64,000 nucleotides of DNA from Prochlorococcus marinus str. MIT 9107 (GTDB lineage Bacteria; Cyanobacteriota; Cyanobacteriia; PCC-6307; Cyanobiaceae). The DNA lies in NCBI RefSeq assembly GCF_000759855.1, contig NZ_JNAI01000010.1, positions 248,001 through 312,000 on the forward strand. The letters are read 5' to 3'. Below are positions 5,096-33,458 of the stretch, piece after piece; within the stretch, counting starts at the first letter, position 1; each line of letters starts with the position of its first letter. The translations under genes and the position numbers were made by a program. Under the pieces are notes generated by a model. It saw only the letters and a program-made list of their open reading frames with translations. It searched no databases and was not told the origin of the DNA.

Positions 5096-5554
5096 CTAAT
5101 TTTCAGATCGCCATTTTGAATCAGAAGTTTCCCACTCGCATAATTCGTCTTCGCTAAACCATAGATTAATTTCAAATTTTGCTGTGTCTTCTCCATCAGA
5201 ACCATGAATTATATTTCTCCCGATATCAATAGCTAAATCACCTCTAATTGTACCAGGCTCTGCTTCAAGAGGCTTTGTTGCACCTATTAACTTTCTAGCG
5301 CTCAAAATAACTCCTTCTCCTTGCCAAACCATGGCAACTACTGGACCACTTGAAATAAAATTTACTAAATCACCAAAAAAGGGTCTTTCTTTATGAACTC
5401 CATAATGATTTTGAGCAAGATCTTTTGAAGGAATTAATTGCTTTAAACCAACCAATTTAAATCCTTTTTTTTCAAATCTGCCTATAATCTCAGAAACATA
5501 TCCTCTTTGAACTCCATCTGGTTTAATTGCAATAAACGTTCTCTCTTGAGTCAT
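5096..5554 (-). CDS. ndk: Ndk, nucleoside diphosphate kinase
   Basis: It equilibrates nucleoside di- and triphosphates by a ping-pong mechanism through a phosphohistidine. The catalytic His is at about residue 117 in NIIHGSD, and the N-terminal [15 protein letters not shown] is canonical. The length of 152 residues is standard. It converges with thiO, with 3 bases between the stops, and is divergent from speA by 121 bases. Confidence 0.97.
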
Positions 5555-25415: not shown

Positions 25416-26900
25416 ATGAAAGGTTTTGGCGAAAAAAACCAATCGAAGAAAGAAATAACTTCAAAAAATAAACAGAAAGTAAATATCGGTCAATTAATTA
25501 AAAAAGCATTCGAACTACAATCACAAGGAAATAAATTAGAAGCAGCAAAATACTATGCATATCTTATTAAACAAGGAATAAAAGACCATAGAATTTTTTC
25601 GAATTATGGAATATTCCTTAACGAGATCGGCAAACATAAAGAAGCAGAATTAGAACTTAAAAAAGCAATTTCTTTAAATCCAGAATATGCAAATGCTTAC
25701 TACAATCTCGCAGTTTTATACATAGGTCAAGGAAATTTGGAAAAAGCAGAATTAGAACTTAAAAAAACAATTAAACTTAAATCAGACTTTGCTATTGCTC
25801 ACTATAATCTTGGATTCATATTAAAAGATCAGGGTAGATTAAAAGAGGCAGAAACATATACTCAAAAAGCACTTGAAGTTGATCCTCAATTTACGGATGC
25901 ATATTTGTCACTATCAACAATGCAAACAAGTGATACAAGTCAAAAATGGCATAATCAACTTTTTTCTGAAAGTCTTTTAAAAAATAAAAATAACAGAGAA
26001 TTAGTGAATATTTTTTTTGCAAGATCAAATATTTTTCATGGAAAAGGCAAATATGAAGAAAGTGCTGAGAATTTAATTACTGCAAATAATATCAAACTTA
26101 GAATACATAAATCTGAAGCAAATTTATTAATCGATAAAACTAAAAAATTAAAAATATCCTCAGAGAATTTTGAAAGAAATAATGAAGAATTTAAAAATTT
26201 TCCAATGTCTATTTTTATAGTAGGTCTTCCTAGATGTGGTTCTACCCTTATCGAATCAATAATCAGTTTGAATAGTAAAGTAAGAGATCTTGGAGAAGTA
26301 AATATCCTTGAAAAATCATATAGAGAATATAAGCAATCTGAAAAACAAATAAACCTTAGCGAAATATATTGGAAAAAACTGGAAATAAAGGATAATAAAA
26401 CACCCACAACAAATAAGTGGTTATTTAATTATCAGTATGCAGGCATAATTGCCAAAGCAATTCCTAATGCAAAAATAATACATTGTTATAGAAACCCTTT
26501 AGATAATATTCTTTCAATTTATAGAGCACATTTCGCAACAGGGAATAATTTCTCTTCAAGTTTGGTTGATTCTGCCGAAGTCTATTCAGATCAAGATGAG
26601 ATTATGCAAACATATAAGAAAGAATTTAAAAATCATATATATTCATTAAATTACGATGAGTTAGTGACTCATCCTTCAAAGGAAATAAAATCCTTAATTC
26701 GTTGGTTAGGTTGGAACTGGAATGATTTATATTTATTGCCACATTTAAATAATCGTAAAATCTCAACAAGAAGTAATGTTCAGGTTCGTTCACCAATTAA
26801 TACAAAATCTTTAGGAGGATGGAAGAACTACAAAGAGATGCTCAGACCTGCTATGGAAATCATTACTAAAAAGAACAAATATAAAGACCTTAAGTATTAA
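25416..26900 (+). CDS. TPR-repeat protein fused to a sulfotransferase domain
   Basis: Residues 20-170 hold about four tetratricopeptide repeats (for example EYANAYYNLAVLYIGQGN and FAIAHYNLGFILKDQGR). From about 265 a sulfotransferase domain begins with the PAPS-binding loop FIVGLPRCGSTLIESI, and IIHCYRNPLDNILSIYR is the 3'-phosphate motif. Full length at 494 residues. The TPR part probably binds a protein or peptide substrate; the substrate is unknown. It is the last gene before the guaA-derived island, with a hairpin after its stop. Confidence 0.85.
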   Translation: MKGFGEKNQSKKEITSKNKQKVNIGQLIKKAFELQSQGNKLEAAKYYAYLIKQGIKDHRIFSNYGIFLNEIGKHKEAELELKKAISLNPEYANAYYNLAVLYIGQGNLEKAELELKKTIKLKSDFAIAHYNLGFILKDQGRLKEAETYTQKALEVDPQFTDAYLSLSTMQTSDTSQKWHNQLFSESLLKNKNNRELVNIFFARSNIFHGKGKYEESAENLITANNIKLRIHKSEANLLIDKTKKLKISSENFERNNEEFKNFPMSIFIVGLPRCGSTLIESIISLNSKVRDLGEVNILEKSYREYKQSEKQINLSEIYWKKLEIKDNKTPTTNKWLFNYQYAGIIAKAIPNAKIIHCYRNPLDNILSIYRAHFATGNNFSSSLVDSAEVYSDQDEIMQTYKKEFKNHIYSLNYDELVTHPSKEIKSLIRWLGWNWNDLYLLPHLNNRKISTRSNVQVRSPINTKSLGGWKNYKEMLRPAMEIITKKNKYKDLKY

Positions 26901-26983: not shown

Positions 26984-27220
26984 GTGCCGTGACAAACCTA
27001 TGACAAATAGAGAGTCGAAACCCCAGTAAAATCGTATCTCTAATCTACTTGATAAACCTTTGACAAACCACTAAACCCCCACTATGACTGATAAAATGAC
27101 CGTAGAACTACTCCCACTCAATAGTCCCTACAAAAAGGTAAGTAAAAAAGGCAGTTATATCAATGGGTCTCAGCTGAGTATAACACAAATTTTTCTACGT
27201 GAAACCCACGTGAAACCTAT
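26984..27220. repeat. Cluster of tandem AAACC-containing direct repeats at the island's left end
   Basis: Three blocks are visible: GTGACAAACCTATGACAAA from about 26989, GATAAACCTTTGACAAACC from 27051, and at 27197-27220 two tandem copies of the 11-mer ACGTGAAACCY followed by AT. Such tandem direct repeats beside an attachment core resemble arm-type sites of tyrosine recombinases; that role is inferred. No gene was found between 26901 and 27281. Confidence 0.55.
27043..27129. mobile_element. Left attachment-site-like copy of the guaA 3' end
   Basis: TCCCACTCAATAGT and CCCT at 27112-27129 match the last codons of guaA (31870-31887) in 17 of 18 bases. On the minus strand they read G-T-I-E-W-E-stop, exactly the end of GuaA. 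Similarity extends outward: ACTATGACT lies 31 bases away here and 30 bases away at guaA, then tandem AAACC repeats, then TACTTGA. No more of guaA is present. This is the pattern left by integration into the 3' end of a gene. Confidence 0.6.
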
Positions 27221-27281: not shown

Positions 27282-27638
27282 TTGAAAAAACTATTTCTTC
27301 TATTTTTGATATTTGGTTTTAGTGCTCCTGCTAATTCAGAACAATATAAAAGGCACAAATATACCTGCCCAGAATCGCAAGGTGAATGTACTGAAGAAGA
27401 AAGAGAAGCAATTAAATTAGTTAACAACAAATATTGGGAAATACTAACAGACAGAATTAAAGAGAACAAATTTTATAAGTATCCTTGGTATTGGGTTTAT
27501 AAAGAAAAAGGAAAGTGTAAGTACACGGTTGCGGCAAAAGAGGATATGCCAACTCATACTGCAAATATGGAATGGATTGATGTTGATATTTGCGAAAAGA
27601 GTACCAAATTAAAATATCGTGATGGTAGATATAGATGA
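27282..27638 (+). CDS. Small exported protein in the guaA island, unknown
   Basis: A 118-residue protein starting at TTG 27282. Residues 1-20 (MKKLFLLFLIFGFSAPANSE) are a classical signal peptide with a likely cut after ANS. The mature part has six Cys-containing or aromatic patches (YTCPESQGECTEEER, KGKCKYTV, DICEKS) and many Lys/Tyr, suggesting a disulfide-stabilised periplasmic or lumenal protein. Its stop overlaps the next start. No family recognised. Confidence 0.65.
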   Translation: MKKLFLLFLIFGFSAPANSEQYKRHKYTCPESQGECTEEEREAIKLVNNKYWEILTDRIKENKFYKYPWYWVYKEKGKCKYTVAAKEDMPTHTANMEWIDVDICEKSTKLKYRDGRYR

Positions 27639-28186
27639 AACGCTTACTTTTTTTATCACTCTTATTAACTCTGATTCCTTCAGTAAATGCAGAAGAAATT
27701 TGCACTCTTACAAGTGAAGTAGAACCGGATGTGACTATAACTTTGAAATATACTGGTTCAGCTGGAGGTATAGGAACTTTAAATTATAAAAATAAACCTT
27801 CATTAGGTCTTGACATAGGTATTTGGAATGGATATGGAGGTCAATATTATGTTGCAAGATCATATTTACCTGAATCATTAGACGAAGAAAAAACTTATCA
27901 AGAAAGAACAAAAAATACAAAAAAAATAAGACAAGGACATTTTATGAATTTTGTGGGTAATCAATTAGGAAGAGCAACTTCAAAAGAAGATAGGAAATCT
28001 GGGAAATTAAGAGCATTAATGCCATCACTTTCACAAGGTTATTATTATTCGATTCCTTTTACTCAAGATGGTGAATTTGGAAGACAAAAGTTATCAAAAG
28101 AAATGAAAACTATTATTGATGCTACTGAAGGATTCTTTGTTGATTCGGGTGGATGTAGAAAATTCTTTCCTTATGGATGGGATTAA
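27635..28186 (+). CDS. Second exported protein in the guaA island, unknown
   Basis: A 183-residue protein. MKRLLFLSLLLTLIPSVNA is a signal peptide with an ANA-type cut before EEICTL. The mature domain looks beta-rich with Gly/Tyr (DIGIWNGYGGQYYVARSYLP, GYYYSIPFTQDGEFG) and two Cys (residue about 23 and in GGCRKFF) that could form one disulfide. The ATG overlaps the previous stop (ATGA), so the two exported proteins are translationally coupled and may act together. Convergent with the helicase gene. Family unknown. Confidence 0.65.
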   Translation: MKRLLFLSLLLTLIPSVNAEEICTLTSEVEPDVTITLKYTGSAGGIGTLNYKNKPSLGLDIGIWNGYGGQYYVARSYLPESLDEEKTYQERTKNTKKIRQGHFMNFVGNQLGRATSKEDRKSGKLRALMPSLSQGYYYSIPFTQDGEFGRQKLSKEMKTIIDATEGFFVDSGGCRKFFPYGWD

Positions 28187-28236: not shown

Positions 28237-31200
28237 TTAATAAAATTTTGCTTTTCCTGAGCAATTAGGATTTTCGCACGGATAATATTCTCCAAATTTA
28301 GATTTTCTATAAATTGTCTGCTTACCACATCCATTAACAGGACATATAGGATTTTCAGATTTTGCCCAGTCTTTTGGATTAGATCTTTTAGATGTAATCT
28401 TAAGAGAAAGGCTCTCAGCCATTTCGAGACAAACTCCTTTTTCTCTGATTGTCAGCATTGATTCAAGGGTTTTACCAGAATAAGAAAGTGGGTTTAAAGA
28501 TCCAAACCAGGCAACATCTGAATCTATAAGAACGGCTTTTTGATGAAAACGTGCTCTTTGATCTACGACAATTCCCTCTTGTCGTAATGCTTTAATAGTT
28601 TTTAGGCATGCATCAGGCTGGTTCTTGCCGAAAGATCCATTTGTTTCATTAGAAGGAACGACTATTCTCACAGAAACACCTTCTTTGATTTTAAGAACTA
28701 ATTTTGGCAACATTTCTTGTATCCTTTGAGGTGTAAAAAAACCTGAATAGATAATTATCGCTTCTTTTGCTGAAGTAATATCGTTGTATAGGAGAGGAAA
28801 AAATTGATCTTGATTAACCATACCGGTATTTTCAAGAGGAAAATCAAAGTTCTTAGGCTGAAAATAAGATTTTAAAAGCTCATTTGTAATTGTCTCTAAA
28901 TTTATTATTTTTCTGGCATCTATAACCTTGCCTTCACTTTGAGACTTAAATAGAATCTCTCTTAAAAAACTATTATTTGGAAGTTTTTTATCAAAACTTG
29001 CCATATCCACAATAAAAATAATTTGTTTTTTTGTTCGACTAATTGCAACATTTAAGAGTTTTGCTCCCTCAGCTTCAGGATAAGTAGAAGTTAAAAATGG
29101 ATGTAAAGTCTTATTATTACTGTTAGCTTCGACAGTATCGTAAATAATTATATCTTTTTCATCTCCTTGAAAACTATGAACTGTTCCACTAGAAACTTCA
29201 TTTAAAATTTCCTCAGATGAAATAGCATTAAAAATCTTTATTTGTCCTTTAAAAGGGGCACAATAGCCTAAAGAATAATTTGGTGAATTCTCAATTAATT
29301 GTTTAATTATATTTCTAGCAACCAAAGCATTCATAGGGTTTATTTTAGAACCTATATTTGTATTAGAAGAAAAAGGAAATACAGTTGATGTATCAATTAT
29401 TGTTGTTACTACAGAATCTAAAACTTGAGATTCAAGGTTTTTTTTGTTTGATTTTTGAGGAATACTTTTTAAATTTGATTTATACATAAACTCACTTATC
29501 AAATTACAAATATTTGGATGCATTCGATATTGCGTATCTAACATTATCAAATTAGTTTCATTATTTAATTTATTAGTTCTAGCCTCTTCTGCTATGCCAG
29601 TTATTTCAAATATATTCTTTCCTAGTAGATCATTTAAATCTTGATTTTTTGAAGAAAAAATTGGGGATAATTGAGCAAAATCGCCTGAAATGATTATTCT
29701 TTTATTTGACAATGATGAAGCTAAATAAAGCATAGGCAAAAGACCCATTGAAGCCTCATCTATAATTACATTTTCGAATTTATTTAAATCAGAAGCACTC
29801 AAAAATACCTTCGTTAAAGTTGTTCCAATTACAATTGATTCATCAATTACAACTTTTTTAATTTCTTCTATTTTTTTTTCATTTTCTTGAATATCTGCTG
29901 AGAATTTATTAATTTCATTTTGAACATTTTTTACTTTTATCAAAATTTCTCTTCTTGAAAAGTCTTTTGTTTTCTCTTCTATTTGGTCTAATAAAGAATC
30001 AATTTCTTTAACTTCAGCATTAATATCACTTAAATTTTTTCTAAATTTATTAATAAGTTTTAATATTTTTTCTATTGATTGATCATTGAAAGAAATATCA
30101 ATCTTCAATTGCTCTGGACTCCGTCCAAAGATACCTCTTAAGCCCCCTTTCCCCTCAATTCTTAAATTATATTTTTCAAGTAATCCTTCATTTTCTCTTT
30201 CTAAATTATCTATATTATCTCGTTTCTCATTAAGTTCGATTTCCAAATCTTTGTATTTATTCTTTAAACGTTTTCTTTTTTGATTTAGTGTATCTATCTC
30301 TTTAAAAAGTTTATTTATAATCAATAAATCTCTATTTTTTGATTCAGCATTTTCCTTGGCATTCATTAACTTATTAATTTCTTTTTTAAATTCTTTTGCT
30401 CTTGCATCGCAAATACCCTCTAGAGAAACTAAATCAAAGAAGTTGTCTCTCAAATCATCATTAAAGATTCTCCCAAGCCTTATAATTTTCCCTCTTTTTA
30501 CATTCTTATTATCTTCCTTTCTCGCGAGCTTAAGAAAAACCTGATCTACTGCCATATTTGTATTAGAGCAAATTAAAGTTCTTTCATTATTCTCACAAAA
30601 AGTTTCTATCAAAGATGTAAGCGTTTGCGTTTTACCCGTCCCAGGAGGGCCCCACAAATAACTAATATCTGATGAAATTGCTTTCGATAAAAAAGAATTT
30701 TGTGAATCATTTAAATCTAATTTTTTCTCGAAATAATTCGCATCAATATAATCAAATTTATTATTTATAAAATTTTCAGCAAATTTAAAATTCAATCCCA
30801 GCGAATTATCTATTGATTTATCTCCATTCTGTTTCTTTGAAAGTCCAATTTCATTGCCAATCCTATCTCTCAAAGATTCTATGATGGCGGTATTATCAAC
30901 AATTATTTTTCCGGGTTGAGTTTTTTCGCCAAAAAAATGATCAGTAGTTATAGAAATTGAAGAATTTTTACCAGTTGTAATACTTACTATTCTTCCCTCA
31001 GCTTTTTGAGAACCTATTCTTAGAGTTACCCTTGCATTTTCAAATATATCTTCAGCAGCTGTCAATATTGGAAATATGTATAAATAATTTTGATCATTTT
31101 GCTCAATCTCCTGCAATATTTTACCAGGAAGCAAATCAATACTCTTACCAAAAGATGTTTTTTTTAACTCATCTATCCAATCATCTAACGAATAAAAAAA

Positions 31201-31653
31201 TTTCTGCGCCCAATTAAATTTATCAAATTCAGTTTTTGAAAAACCAGCAATCCCTTTACCCTTTCGCGAAAATTCGTAATGAGAAGGGACATCCGTTAAG
31301 TACGATCCACTTTTTCTAATTTCGTGGATTGAGGTTTCTCTCGGACCCTCATCATTTGTAGAATTATCTGAAATATTATTTATATCTATTCTTTCGATAG
31401 TTTCGGTTTCAATTTCAGTTTCAGTTTCGGTTTCTTTAGTTTGATGATTATTTCCAATATTTATTGGCTGATTCGATGTAGCAAGAAATATATTGATTTT
31501 ATTTAAAGTTGCCTCGAGCATTTTTGCCCTTTTTTTTCTGGTACCAATTTCAATTTTTAAAATTTTTAATTCTTTAGCATCATTTTGTTTGATCAAATCA
31601 TCAGCAATTTCAATTATTTGCTTAGCAGATTTTCTTATATATTTCCGATACAT
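28237..31653 (-). CDS. SF1 (UPF1-like) helicase fused to PLD nuclease and zinc ribbon; Mokosh type II-like defence candidate
   Basis: 1138 residues. An N-terminal helical part with a Thr-Glu repeat (about 74-86) leads to the helicase: Walker A GPPGTGKT 335-342, a long coiled coil about 415-600, DEAS 632-635, GDFAQLSP 657-664, QYRMHP 708-713, VHSFQGDE 825-832 and NVAISRTK 868-875. A phospholipase-D nuclease motif follows (H1037, K1039, D1044), and then a CX4C...CX4C zinc ribbon (1104-1131). SF1 helicase-PLD fusion is the layout of the single-gene type II Mokosh anti-phage system; the assignment is by architecture only. It sits alone in an island between guaA-end duplicates, fitting a defence role. 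A repair or RNA-processing role cannot be excluded. Confidence 0.8.
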   Translation of the reverse strand: MYRKYIRKSAKQIIEIADDLIKQNDAKELKILKIEIGTRKKRAKMLEATLNKINIFLATSNQPINIGNNHQTKETETETEIETETIERIDINNISDNSTNDEGPRETSIHEIRKSGSYLTDVPSHYEFSRKGKGIAGFSKTEFDKFNWAQKFFYSLDDWIDELKKTSFGKSIDLLPGKILQEIEQNDQNYLYIFPILTAAEDIFENARVTLRIGSQKAEGRIVSITTGKNSSISITTDHFFGEKTQPGKIIVDNTAIIESLRDRIGNEIGLSKKQNGDKSIDNSLGLNFKFAENFINNKFDYIDANYFEKKLDLNDSQNSFLSKAISSDISYLWGPPGTGKTQTLTSLIETFCENNERTLICSNTNMAVDQVFLKLARKEDNKNVKRGKIIRLGRIFNDDLRDNFFDLVSLEGICDARAKEFKKEINKLMNAKENAESKNRDLLIINKLFKEIDTLNQKRKRLKNKYKDLEIELNEKRDNIDNLERENEGLLEKYNLRIEGKGGLRGIFGRSPEQLKIDISFNDQSIEKILKLINKFRKNLSDINAEVKEIDSLLDQIEEKTKDFSRREILIKVKNVQNEINKFSADIQENEKKIEEIKKVVIDESIVIGTTLTKVFLSASDLNKFENVIIDEASMGLLPMLYLASSLSNKRIIISGDFAQLSPIFSSKNQDLNDLLGKNIFEITGIAEEARTNKLNNETNLIMLDTQYRMHPNICNLISEFMYKSNLKSIPQKSNKKNLESQVLDSVVTTIIDTSTVFPFSSNTNIGSKINPMNALVARNIIKQLIENSPNYSLGYCAPFKGQIKIFNAISSEEILNEVSSGTVHSFQGDEKDIIIYDTVEANSNNKTLHPFLTSTYPEAEGAKLLNVAISRTKKQIIFIVDMASFDKKLPNNSFLREILFKSQSEGKVIDARKIINLETITNELLKSYFQPKNFDFPLENTGMVNQDQFFPLLYNDITSAKEAIIIYSGFFTPQRIQEMLPKLVLKIKEGVSVRIVVPSNETNGSFGKNQPDACLKTIKALRQEGIVVDQRARFHQKAVLIDSDVAWFGSLNPLSYSGKTLESMLTIREKGVCLEMAESLSLKITSKRSNPKDWAKSENPICPVNGCGKQTIYRKSKFGEYYPCENPNCSGKAKFY

Positions 31654-31805: not shown

Positions 31806-31831
31806 TGACGTGAAACCTACGTGAAACCTAT
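31806..31831. repeat. Tandem 11-base repeats at the island's right end
   Basis: Two tandem copies of ACGTGAAACCT (31808-31818, 31819-31829) followed by AT match the block at 27197-27220 in 23 of 24 bases and in the same orientation. They lie 39 bases outside the guaA stop, next to the attachment-like core. Confidence 0.6.
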
Positions 31832-31865
31832 TTTTTTAGACTATGACTAGGTTTATAACTTATTT

Positions 31866-33458
31866 TCATTCCCACTCAATAGTTCCTGGAGGTTTGCTTG
31901 TAATATCATAAACAACTCTATTAACTGAATCGACTTCATTGACGACTCTATTTGAAATTCTCTCTAAAATCTGAAAAGGAATTTTTGACCAGTCTGCTGT
32001 CATACCATCTTCACTGGATACACAACGTATAACAATTGGCCATGCATAAGTCCTTTTATCACCCATAACTCCTACAGTTTTAACCGGTAACAATACTGCA
32101 AAAGCTTGCCAAATATCATTATAAAGACCTGATTTTTTAATTTCATCTCTCACTATCCAGTCTGCATCTCTTAAACAATCGAGTTTTTCATTAGTAACTT
32201 CTCCCAAAATTCTTATCGCTAAACCAGGGCCTGGGAATGGATGTCTTTTAATAATTTCATCAGGCAAGCCTAAAGCTGCTCCTAATTTTCGAACTTCATC
32301 CTTAAAAAGTTTTCTTAAGGGCTCAACTAATTTAAATTGCAGATCTTTTGGTAATCCACCCACATTATGATGACTTTTTATTTTCACAGCAATTCTCTCA
32401 CCTGTCTTGGGATCAATATTAGTTCCAGCACTTTCGATAACATCAGGATAAAGAGTACCTTGAGCTAAATACTGAAAAGGTCCCAATCTATTACTTTCTT
32501 CTTCAAATACTCTAATAAATTCTTCCCCGATAATTTTTCTTTTCTGTTCTGGATCAGTAATCCCTTTTAATTTTGCAATAAATCTTTCCCTAGCGTTTAT
32601 ATATTTAACTTTTATATGAAATTTCTTATCAAAAAAATTCATTAAAAATTCCGGTTCCCCTTTTCTCATGAAACCTTGATCTATAAACATGCAAGTAAGC
32701 TGTGTTCCAATTGCTTTATTGAGTAAAAAAGCAAGAGTTGATGAATCAACACCTCCTGACAATGCAAGCAAAACTTTCTTATTTCCAACCTGTTCTCTTA
32801 TTCTGGGAATTGTCTCTTCTAAAAAGGTTTCCGTTGTCCAATCAGCCTCACAACAAGAGATTTTATAAACAAAATTTTTAATTACTGTCATCCCAAACTC
32901 TGAATGAATTACTTCAGGATGAAATTGTACGCCAAATAATTTCTTAGTATCATTTGCAATTGCTGCATGGAGTGTGTTTTCGGTATGAGCAATTTTATTA
33001 AATCCATCAGGCAAACAGTTAATTGAATCACCATGACTCATCCACATTATAGATTTATCTTCTACATCAGAAAGAAGATCACATTTTAAATCTATGTTTA
33101 TTGGTGCTCTCCCATACTCAGCTTTTTTAGTAGCTGCAGTAACAGAACCTCCAAGTTCTTTGACCATTAATTGCATTCCATAGCATATACCAAGAATAGG
33201 AATTCCTAAATCAAAAATTTTTTCATCACATTTAGGAGCATTTTGATCATAAACAGAATTTGGGCCTCCACTCAAAATTATCCCTTTAGGACTAATATCC
33301 TGAATATCCTCAATTGAAGTATGGTTACTTACTACAAGAGAAAAAACATTAGTTTCTCTAATTCTTCTTGCAATCAATTCAGAATATTGAGATCCGAAAT
33401 CCAAAATTAATATTGAAGGATTTCGTTCTTTTTTTAAAGATTTTTGACTCATATACAA
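31866..33458 (-). CDS. guaA: GuaA, GMP synthase (glutamine-hydrolysing)
   Basis: It converts XMP to GMP. The class I glutamine amidotransferase domain comes first (nucleophile Cys in GICYGMQLM, His-Glu in FHPEVIHSE). The ATP-pyrophosphatase domain follows (P-loop [11 protein letters not shown]), then the dimerisation domain ending KPPGTIEWE. The protein is intact at 530 residues. Its last six codons are duplicated at 27112-27129, marking it as the apparent insertion site of the island. It lies just downstream of cbiD on the same strand. Confidence 0.96.

What the first reader, a model, noticed from the sequence alone, without database searches (positions are those of the whole stretch)
28237..31653. 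Single-gene helicase-PLD nuclease-zinc ribbon protein, Mokosh type II-like
One 1138-residue protein joins a complete SF1 helicase (GPPGTGKT, DEAS, GDFAQLSP, VHSFQGDE), a long coiled coil, one HxKx4D phospholipase-D nuclease motif and a CX4C...CX4C zinc ribbon. Helicase-PLD fusion defines type II Mokosh anti-phage systems. It lies alone in an island in an otherwise streamlined genome, so strong selection such as phage pressure is plausible. The zinc ribbon and Thr-Glu N-terminal repeat may be lineage-specific features.
Basis: partly seen in the sequence, partly recalled or inferred. Interest (0 to 1): 0.8.

Follow-up and report, generated by a model that had tools for sequence, protein, structure and literature searches.

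The report
Marine helicase-nuclease with shared N-terminal module
A rare, apparently mobile gene in a Prochlorococcus genome encodes one large protein that joins a nucleic-acid-unwinding motor to a nucleic-acid-cutting domain; it is probably an anti-virus protein, though not a member of the known type it resembles, and its small front module turns up on quite different probable defence proteins in other bacteria.

Summary
In detail: 28237-31653 (-) encodes 1138 aa with a complete UPF1-like SF1 helicase, a coiled-coil insertion, one intact PLD motif (HxKx4Dx6GSxN) and a zinc ribbon. It is not housekeeping: a full-length copy is in 2 of 266 genomes of the genus. It is not Mokosh type II either: the MkoC profile gives 127 bits over part of the protein against 929-1244 for three MkoC proteins, and a tree test rejects grouping with MkoC (p 0.00013).

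I found five full-length members: two Prochlorococcus, one from another genus of that family, two SAR86. All share a ~60-residue N-terminal module, predicted as three helices, with no Pfam match above cut-off. Related modules start unrelated helicases: Vsr-nuclease fusions in Prochlorococcus, and proteobacterial helicases, some beside restriction endonucleases, one in an E. coli Hachiman island. Both SAR86 members have a WYL gene next door.

The gene lies in a ~4.7 kb cassette at the guaA 3' end, bracketed by the known guaA integration repeat and paired arm-like repeats, without integrase. Best reading: a horizontally moving, single-protein helicase-nuclease for phage defence. No activity was tested; RNA or DNA target is undecided.

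The parts
28237..31653 (-). helicase-PLD-zinc ribbon gene, 1138 aa
31474..31653 (-). N-terminal module, residues 1-60, predicted three helices (10-23, 26-38, 44-60)
31213..31473 (-). variable linker, residues 61-147, holds the Thr-Glu stretch; low predicted confidence
30850..31212 (-). mixed helix/strand domain before the motor, residues 148-268 (OB/1B-like by position; name inferred)
   Evidence: also present at the N-terminus of P0004 and P0005
30628..30651 (-). Walker A GPPGTGKT, residues 335-342
29839..30399 (-). long helical, coiled-coil-like insertion between Walker A and the DEAS motif, residues 419-605
28954..29838 (-). rest of the SF1 motor with DEAS, GDFAQLSP, QYRMHP, VHSFQGDE, NVAISR, residues 606-900
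28384..28821 (-). PLD nuclease domain, about residues 945-1090, with HxKx4D (28522-28545) and GSxN
28261..28344 (-). zinc ribbon, residues 1104-1131
27635..28186 (+). 183-aa ORF with a signal-peptide-like start; a homologue (28.8%, 6e-14) lies one gene away from the related helicase in AG-686-J21
27282..27638 (+). 118-aa ORF in the same cassette
31870..31883 (.). right copy of the integration repeat TCCCACTCAATAGT (3' end of guaA; reverse complement holds GAGTGGGA)
27112..27125 (.). left copy of the same repeat
31808..31828 (.). right arm-like double repeat ACGTGAAACCTACGTGAAACC
27197..27217 (.). left arm-like double repeat ACGTGAAACCCACGTGAAACC
31866..33458 (-). guaA, the anchoring core gene

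Best explanation
It is a single-protein, ATP-driven helicase-nuclease that protects its host against phages or other invading elements, carried as mobile cargo. Proposed working: the N-terminal module and the zinc ribbon bring the protein to its target or partner; the UPF1-like motor loads on single-stranded RNA or DNA and moves along it; the coiled-coil arm couples or dimerises the motor; the PLD domain, which has only one HKD motif and so probably pairs with that of a second chain, cuts the strand. Shown here by sequence: the domains, their intact motifs, the five-member family, its patchy spread, the insertion at guaA. Inferred: defence role, dimerisation, the roles of module and zinc ribbon, the target. 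Between RNA and DNA I lean slightly to RNA, because the motor is nearest to UPF1/SMUBP2-type proteins.
For: Intact motor and PLD motifs in 5 of 5 members. Nearest solved sequences are NAM7/UPF1 and SMUBP-2, NCBIfam IGHMBP2 family 141.7 bits, below its cut-off 348.9. Patchy: full-length in 2 of 266 genomes of the genus, 1 of 34 in another genus of the family, 2 of 199 in the SAR86 order. Three of the five lie in identifiable mobile settings: own gene between guaA integration repeats, AG-686-J21 contig with a phage integrase (1.9e-24), G565 next to an integrase-like gene and DUF3987. Guilt by module: related modules begin proteins that match candidate or known defence profiles (P0006: PDC-S37 717.8 bits; antiphage ProA 688.9 and Hhe 513.2, both below cut-off), or lie beside a restriction endonuclease in 3 of 6 plasmid hits (one of them scanned, mREase_IV 293.7 bits), or in an E. 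coli island with Hachiman, DUF4238 and TerB genes. WYL gene beside both SAR86 members.
Against: No known defence gene was found beside the own copy; the cassette holds only two small ORFs of unknown function. No profile of a known system accepts the protein as a member. The defence argument rests on architecture, spread and association, not on activity. Some weak module matches could be chance (two ORFs that I count as false score 17.3 and 16.2 bits, in the range of the weakest accepted ones). UPF1-like helicases also serve repair and RNA turnover.
Confidence: 0.66

Rival explanations
1. It is a true but divergent Mokosh type II (MkoC) protein.
For: Same order of parts, SF1 helicase then one PLD domain; MkoC profile matches helicase and PLD at 2e-37.
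Against: Score 126.8 against 928.9-1243.7 bits for three MkoC proteins; MkoA profile scores better; helicases without any PLD reach 192-220 on MkoC; AU test p 0.000133 against a clade with MkoC (quick tree); a profile of the family gives an MkoC protein only 67 bits against 334 and 323 for cyanobacterial helicases without an HKD motif.
Confidence: 0.07
2. It is an accessory repair or RNA-turnover enzyme (a UPF1/SMUBP2-like helicase with a nuclease) that helps the host or its mobile element, not an immune protein.
For: Nearest solved relatives are UPF1 and SMUBP-2; nearest tree relatives (G066, Aulosira, Cytobacillus) have no known defence role; no defence gene next door.
Against: Rare and patchy, mobile settings, intact nuclease, shared module with defence-profile proteins.
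Confidence: 0.17
3. It serves its mobile element: competition between elements, or exclusion or maintenance of the island (inter-element conflict), with phage protection as a by-product or absent.
For: Cargo position between integration repeats; integrase-bearing contexts in two relatives.
Against: Own cassette has no integrase; SAR86 copies show no integrase among the ORFs I listed by eye (not scanned).
Confidence: 0.1

Closest known systems
Mokosh type II (MkoC)
   Same: One protein with SF1 helicase and one C-terminal PLD domain with the full HxKx4Dx6GSxN motif (P0003).
   Different: Different helicase lineage; no full-length profile match; MkoC as seen here lacks the N-terminal module and the zinc ribbon.
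Mokosh type I (MkoA + MkoB)
   Same: UPF1-like helicase plus PLD nuclease; MkoA profile scores higher than MkoC (196.0 bits). A text states that Mokosh degrades viral transcripts (PMC11291487, passages seen).
   Different: MkoA carries a kinase-type N-terminus and a separate PLD gene next door; here helicase and PLD are one protein and Pfam finds no kinase. A MkoA from Nostoc scores 711 bits.
CoCoNuT CnuH / CnuE (PMC11090510, passages seen)
   Same: UPF1-like helicase with a large helical, coiled-coil-bearing insertion after Walker A, an OB/stalk part, and nuclease effectors that include PLD, and a Vsr domain fused directly to the helicase in type III-B; predicted to act on RNA.
   Different: CoCoNuTs come with McrB/McrC-type partners (CnuB, CnuC); the own cassette holds none. 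CnuE PLD domains are on a separate protein with a wHTH domain. No direct sequence comparison with CnuH was made here.
Cyanobacterial/Bacillus UPF1-like helicases with zinc ribbon (G066 L002, Aulosira P0004, Cytobacillus P0005)
   Same: Sister group in the tree (SH-aLRT 99); same domain before the motor; zinc ribbon in two of the three.
   Different: 741-903 aa, no N-terminal module in the alignment, no long insertion, no HxKx4D motif.
ProA / Hhe / PDC-S37 type helicase-Vsr proteins (P0006)
   Same: In Prochlorococcus they begin with the same N-terminal module.
   Different: Different helicase group and a different nuclease (MTES_1575).

Membership tests
Mokosh type II (MkoC) | SF1 helicase and PLD nuclease in one protein | tested here: met
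Mokosh type II (MkoC) | full-length match to the MkoC profile | tested here: not met
   126.8 bits, best stretch 629-1061; three MkoC proteins 928.9, 1243.7, 1203.1 bits over their length
Mokosh type II (MkoC) | groups with MkoC in a helicase tree | tested here: not met
   34-row quick tree, AU p 0.000133
Mokosh type II (MkoC) | anti-phage activity | not testable with these tools
   needs plaque assays
Mokosh type I (MkoA/MkoB) | kinase-type N-terminus on the helicase and a separate PLD partner gene | tested here: not met
   Pfam finds no kinase in P0001; neighbours in the cassette are two small ORFs; Nostoc and Pseudanabaena pairs serve as contrast
UPF1-like SF1 helicase | motor motifs and nearest solved relatives UPF1/SMUBP-2 | tested here: met
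   NCBIfam IGHMBP2 model below cut-off
PLD nuclease superfamily | HxKx4D with GSxN | tested here: met
   5 of 5 members carry HxKx4Dx6GSxN; PLDc_2 above cut-off
CoCoNuT (CnuH-containing) | UPF1-like helicase with coiled-coil insertion after Walker A | tested here: met
   position of the insertion; definition from passages
CoCoNuT (CnuH-containing) | association with McrB/McrC homologues | tested here: not met
   own locus only, by its ORF list; loci of the other members not scanned for McrB/McrC
guaA-associated genomic island | direct repeat with GAGTGGGA at the guaA 3' end and at the far end | tested here: met
   consensus from passages of PMC7775301
guaA-associated genomic island | integrase gene inside | tested here: not met
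   only three ORFs of note between the repeats, none integrase-like

The most novel reading that the evidence does not exclude
The N-terminal three-helix module is a general, so far unnamed adaptor of prokaryotic immunity: a plug that different helicase lineages (UPF1-like with PLD, ProA/Hhe-like with Vsr, MkoC-sister helicases beside type IV-like restriction enzymes, UvrD-like) and a WYL protein carry to find one common cue or partner in infected cells. The marine family described here would then be one of several sensor-motor-nuclease sets built on it, spread among streamlined ocean bacteria in small guaA-anchored cassettes.
Probability: 0.35. Interest if true: 0.8.

Novelty: new variant of a known kind. 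Interest (0 to 1): 0.6.

Why it matters
Streamlined ocean bacteria are often described as poor in classical defence systems (my recall). A compact helicase-nuclease that is shared by Prochlorococcus, a related genus and SAR86, and sits in a small guaA-anchored cassette, shows one way in which such cells may gain immunity. The recurrent N-terminal module gives a handle to find further systems: it has no Pfam match above cut-off in the five copies tested, yet links several kinds of probable defence helicase. The case also warns that a helicase-PLD fusion is not by itself Mokosh type II.

Tried and rejected
Mokosh type II membership: rejected. Housekeeping helicase: rejected by spread. Function of the Thr-Glu stretch: dropped, not conserved.

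The pattern scans see only places that match short peptides, so absence is weak evidence.

Fold of the full protein: mean pLDDT 49 with four sequences, not used beyond secondary structure. Fold of the N-module alone: pLDDT 82; Foldseek gave no match at E <= 0.001 among 35, VIA-align best Z 6.7 to ordinary helical bundles; no fold or function is claimed.

Rows dropped: in the N-module search of the genus 63 of 266 genomes matched at E <= 0.1; I use the 12 at E <= 7e-9, of which one (G050) is a 70-aa frame and is not used further; the other 51 (E >= 0.00129) I take as chance helical matches. In one search, G306 and G333 (about 9e-4) were dropped for lack of the start signature. In the tree 41 proteins were considered: four were left out because the motif search failed (Aulosira 1478 aa, two Lachnospiraceae, cy_G352), one MkoC was put back with a looser motif, and three very divergent ones (two Vsr-type, Variovorax 1495 aa) were taken out before building; 34 remain.

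Control on the module: a profile of the five family modules scores 14 of 14 others at 16.5-50.4 bits against at most 9.4 for 2800 shuffles; but those 14 had been picked by earlier searches, and among 5862 ORFs two that I count as false (L177 17.3, L183 16.2) overlap the weakest accepted ones.

Empty site: of eight relatives looked at, one (G008) has guaA and mreB about 0.5 kb apart as an empty version of the own order; in the other seven no mreB was found in the fetched stretch, so gene order has changed there.
Full report
Observation. The gene is real and as described: 1138 aa on the minus strand, with AAA_11, AAA_12 and PLDc_2 above Pfam's cut-offs and nearest solved sequences NAM7/UPF1 and SMUBP-2. 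The zinc ribbon is a weak Pfam match but its cysteines are invariant in the family.

Spread. A search of 266 genomes of the genus found generic helicase matches in 23, but a full-length relative only in the own genome and in G143 (53% identity), which is Prochlorococcus sp. AG-686-J21 by record title. In 386 genomes drawn from the phylum, the only other full-length match was G565, from another genus of the same family; 1 of 34 genomes of that genus has it. A scan of named genomes listed the best 80 of 440 loci with relatives; three are near full-length: AG-686-J21 and two SAR86 bacteria at 34%. In the SAR86 order 2 of 199 genomes have it. The five proteins (1138-1175 aa) align from end to end. 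Such a spread among unrelated marine bacteria with small genomes suggests horizontal transfer (inference).

Not Mokosh II. On PADLOC profiles the five members score 124-146 bits on MkoC and 173-202 on one MkoA model, whereas MkoC proteins from Hymenobacter, Agrobacterium and Rhizobium score 929-1244 on MkoC and a Nostoc MkoA 711 on MkoA. A profile of the family itself gives the Hymenobacter MkoC 67 bits, but 334, 323 and 239 to helicases of a cyanobacterium (G066), Aulosira and Cytobacillus (the five members match by construction). In a tree of 34 helicase cores the family is one clade (99), sister to those three (99), and the test for one clade with MkoC gives p 0.000133 (quick method, several rows with unusual composition). 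The sister proteins lack the N-terminal module, the long insertion and the HKD motif, so these are gains of the family or losses of the sisters.

N-terminal module. Residues 1-60 are conserved in all five members, before a variable linker. The search of the genus with the module found the own gene, AG-686-J21 and nine further genomes in which it begins a different protein; seven of these were read at full length (1405-1442 aa), the other two frames are cut by contig ends. Two of the seven were scanned and hold a MTES_1575 (Vsr-like) nuclease; the C-terminal sequence of the other five looks the same by eye. One of them, P0006, matches PDC-S37 (717.8 bits) and, below cut-off, ProA and Hhe. In Pseudomonadota 3 of 319 genomes matched, one being the SAR86 genome itself; in the cyanobacterial phylum 6 of 377, two of them dropped. 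A module from G1175 finds 6 plasmid records: in Agrobacterium (two), Klebsiella and Xanthomonas it begins helicases of 1137-1209 aa, in Variovorax a 189-aa protein with a weak DnaJ match; Methylobacterium has no annotation. The next gene is annotated as restriction endonuclease in three of the six; the one scanned matches mREase_IV (293.7 bits). G1175 has a DUF4238-like neighbour just below cut-off; G616 carries the module behind a WYL domain; a Bradyrhizobium UvrD-type helicase also begins with it. The Klebsiella helicase has a close copy in 2 of 5426 E. coli genomes; the one opened lies in an island with Hachiman, DUF4238, TerB and integrase genes. Five copies of the module gave no Pfam family above cut-off. 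The module alone is predicted as three helices with pLDDT 82; no fold relative stands out. The controls and their limits are in Tried and rejected.

Neighbourhood. Both SAR86 members have a gene with a WYL domain next door, in one on the same strand, in the other convergent; the Hymenobacter MkoC too has a WYL gene before it. In AG-686-J21 the contig carries a phage-integrase gene (1.9e-24) and a second weak integrase match (0.0008); in G565 an integrase-like gene (1.1e-11) and DUF3987 lie within about 5 kb. The 183-aa ORF beside the own gene has a homologue one gene away from the AG-686-J21 copy (6e-14).

The guaA cassette. The 3' end of guaA is repeated 4758 bases away: TCCCACTCAATAGT at 31870 and at 27112 (17 of 18 bases alike in the longer repeat). 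Simulated windows hold 0.02 such sites at up to one mismatch. Its reverse complement contains GAGTGGGA, the consensus given for repeats of guaA-associated genomic islands (PMC7775301, passages); the bare 8-mer also occurs once elsewhere in the window, at 5130. Just inside both copies lies ACGTGAAACCYACGTGAAACC, found twice in the own genome and in 4 of 30 genomes in all, with none for the reversed control. Between the repeats are only the helicase gene and the two small ORFs. In G002 similar repeats flank other cargo at guaA, and in G008 a second contig has repeat-arm units at the same 85-base spacing on either side of other ORFs. G008 has guaA and mreB 0.5 kb apart, where the own genome has 6.8 kb. 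I read this as a small cassette system at guaA, probably moved by a tyrosine recombinase supplied from elsewhere (inference).

How it may work. Motor, coiled-coil arm and PLD are intact, so a nucleic-acid-dependent ATPase that feeds or licenses a nuclease is likely. A single HKD motif per chain suggests a dimeric active site (established for other single-HKD nucleases; recalled). The closest described logic is Mokosh I and the CoCoNuT CnuH/CnuE pair, where a UPF1-like helicase with a coiled-coil insertion works with HEPN, Vsr or PLD nucleases and RNA is the predicted target (PMC11090510, passages). In the present family these parts are one chain. Which nucleic acid is cut, and what switches it on, is open.

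Literature. Searches for Mokosh with Prochlorococcus (0 papers), Mokosh alone (41 papers, 30 listed), Mokosh with PLD and helicase (1 paper), SAR86 with antiphage and defence (2 papers) and helicase/PLD/defence-island/N-terminal domain/WYL (15 papers, 10 listed) showed no title or abstract that describes this family or module; only passages of a few papers were opened, and the library holds open-licence papers only.

Noticed in passing
window 27112-27217 and 31808-31883; L155 9572-11329; L206 2780-4023; L162 2130-2267: Repeat-plus-arm units (TCCCACTCAATAGT-like core, about 85 bases, double ACGTGAAACC arm) recur at or near guaA in the own genome, G002, G008 and, in part, G011, around different cargo: possibly a cassette array anchored at guaA without its own integrase.
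   Followed up: partly
L181 6230-7561 (G616): A 443-aa cyanobacterial protein joins predicted membrane-like N-terminal part (by eye), a WYL domain and the N-terminal module; it links the module to WYL regulation, as the WYL gene beside the SAR86 members does.
   Followed up: partly
L032 6604-10839, L149, L150, L151, L152, L153, L154: Prochlorococcus genomes carry a 1405-1442-aa helicase-MTES_1575 protein of the PDC-S37/ProA/Hhe kind that begins with the same module: another defence candidate in the genus.
   Followed up: partly
L048 13424-15318: In SAR86 D2474-A1-1 the 3' third of the helicase-PLD gene and the WYL gene are repeated in tandem about 3.4 kb downstream.
   Followed up: no
L191 2204-7214 and L192 1-5003: Mokosh type I-like pairs (kinase-helicase plus PLD gene) on Nostoc and Pseudanabaena plasmids, in Nostoc followed by a DncV-like cyclase and an E2-like gene.
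   Followed up: no
L180 6439-8372 (G1096): The module heads a 120-aa frame followed at once by a UvrD-like ORF (by eye), which looks like a frameshifted module-UvrD helicase.
   Followed up: no
window 25416-26900: TPR protein with a sulfotransferase-like C-terminus (the latter by eye) between mreB and the cassette; G008 has a sulfotransferase-like ORF near a repeat-arm unit (by eye, L206 4156-5094).
   Followed up: no
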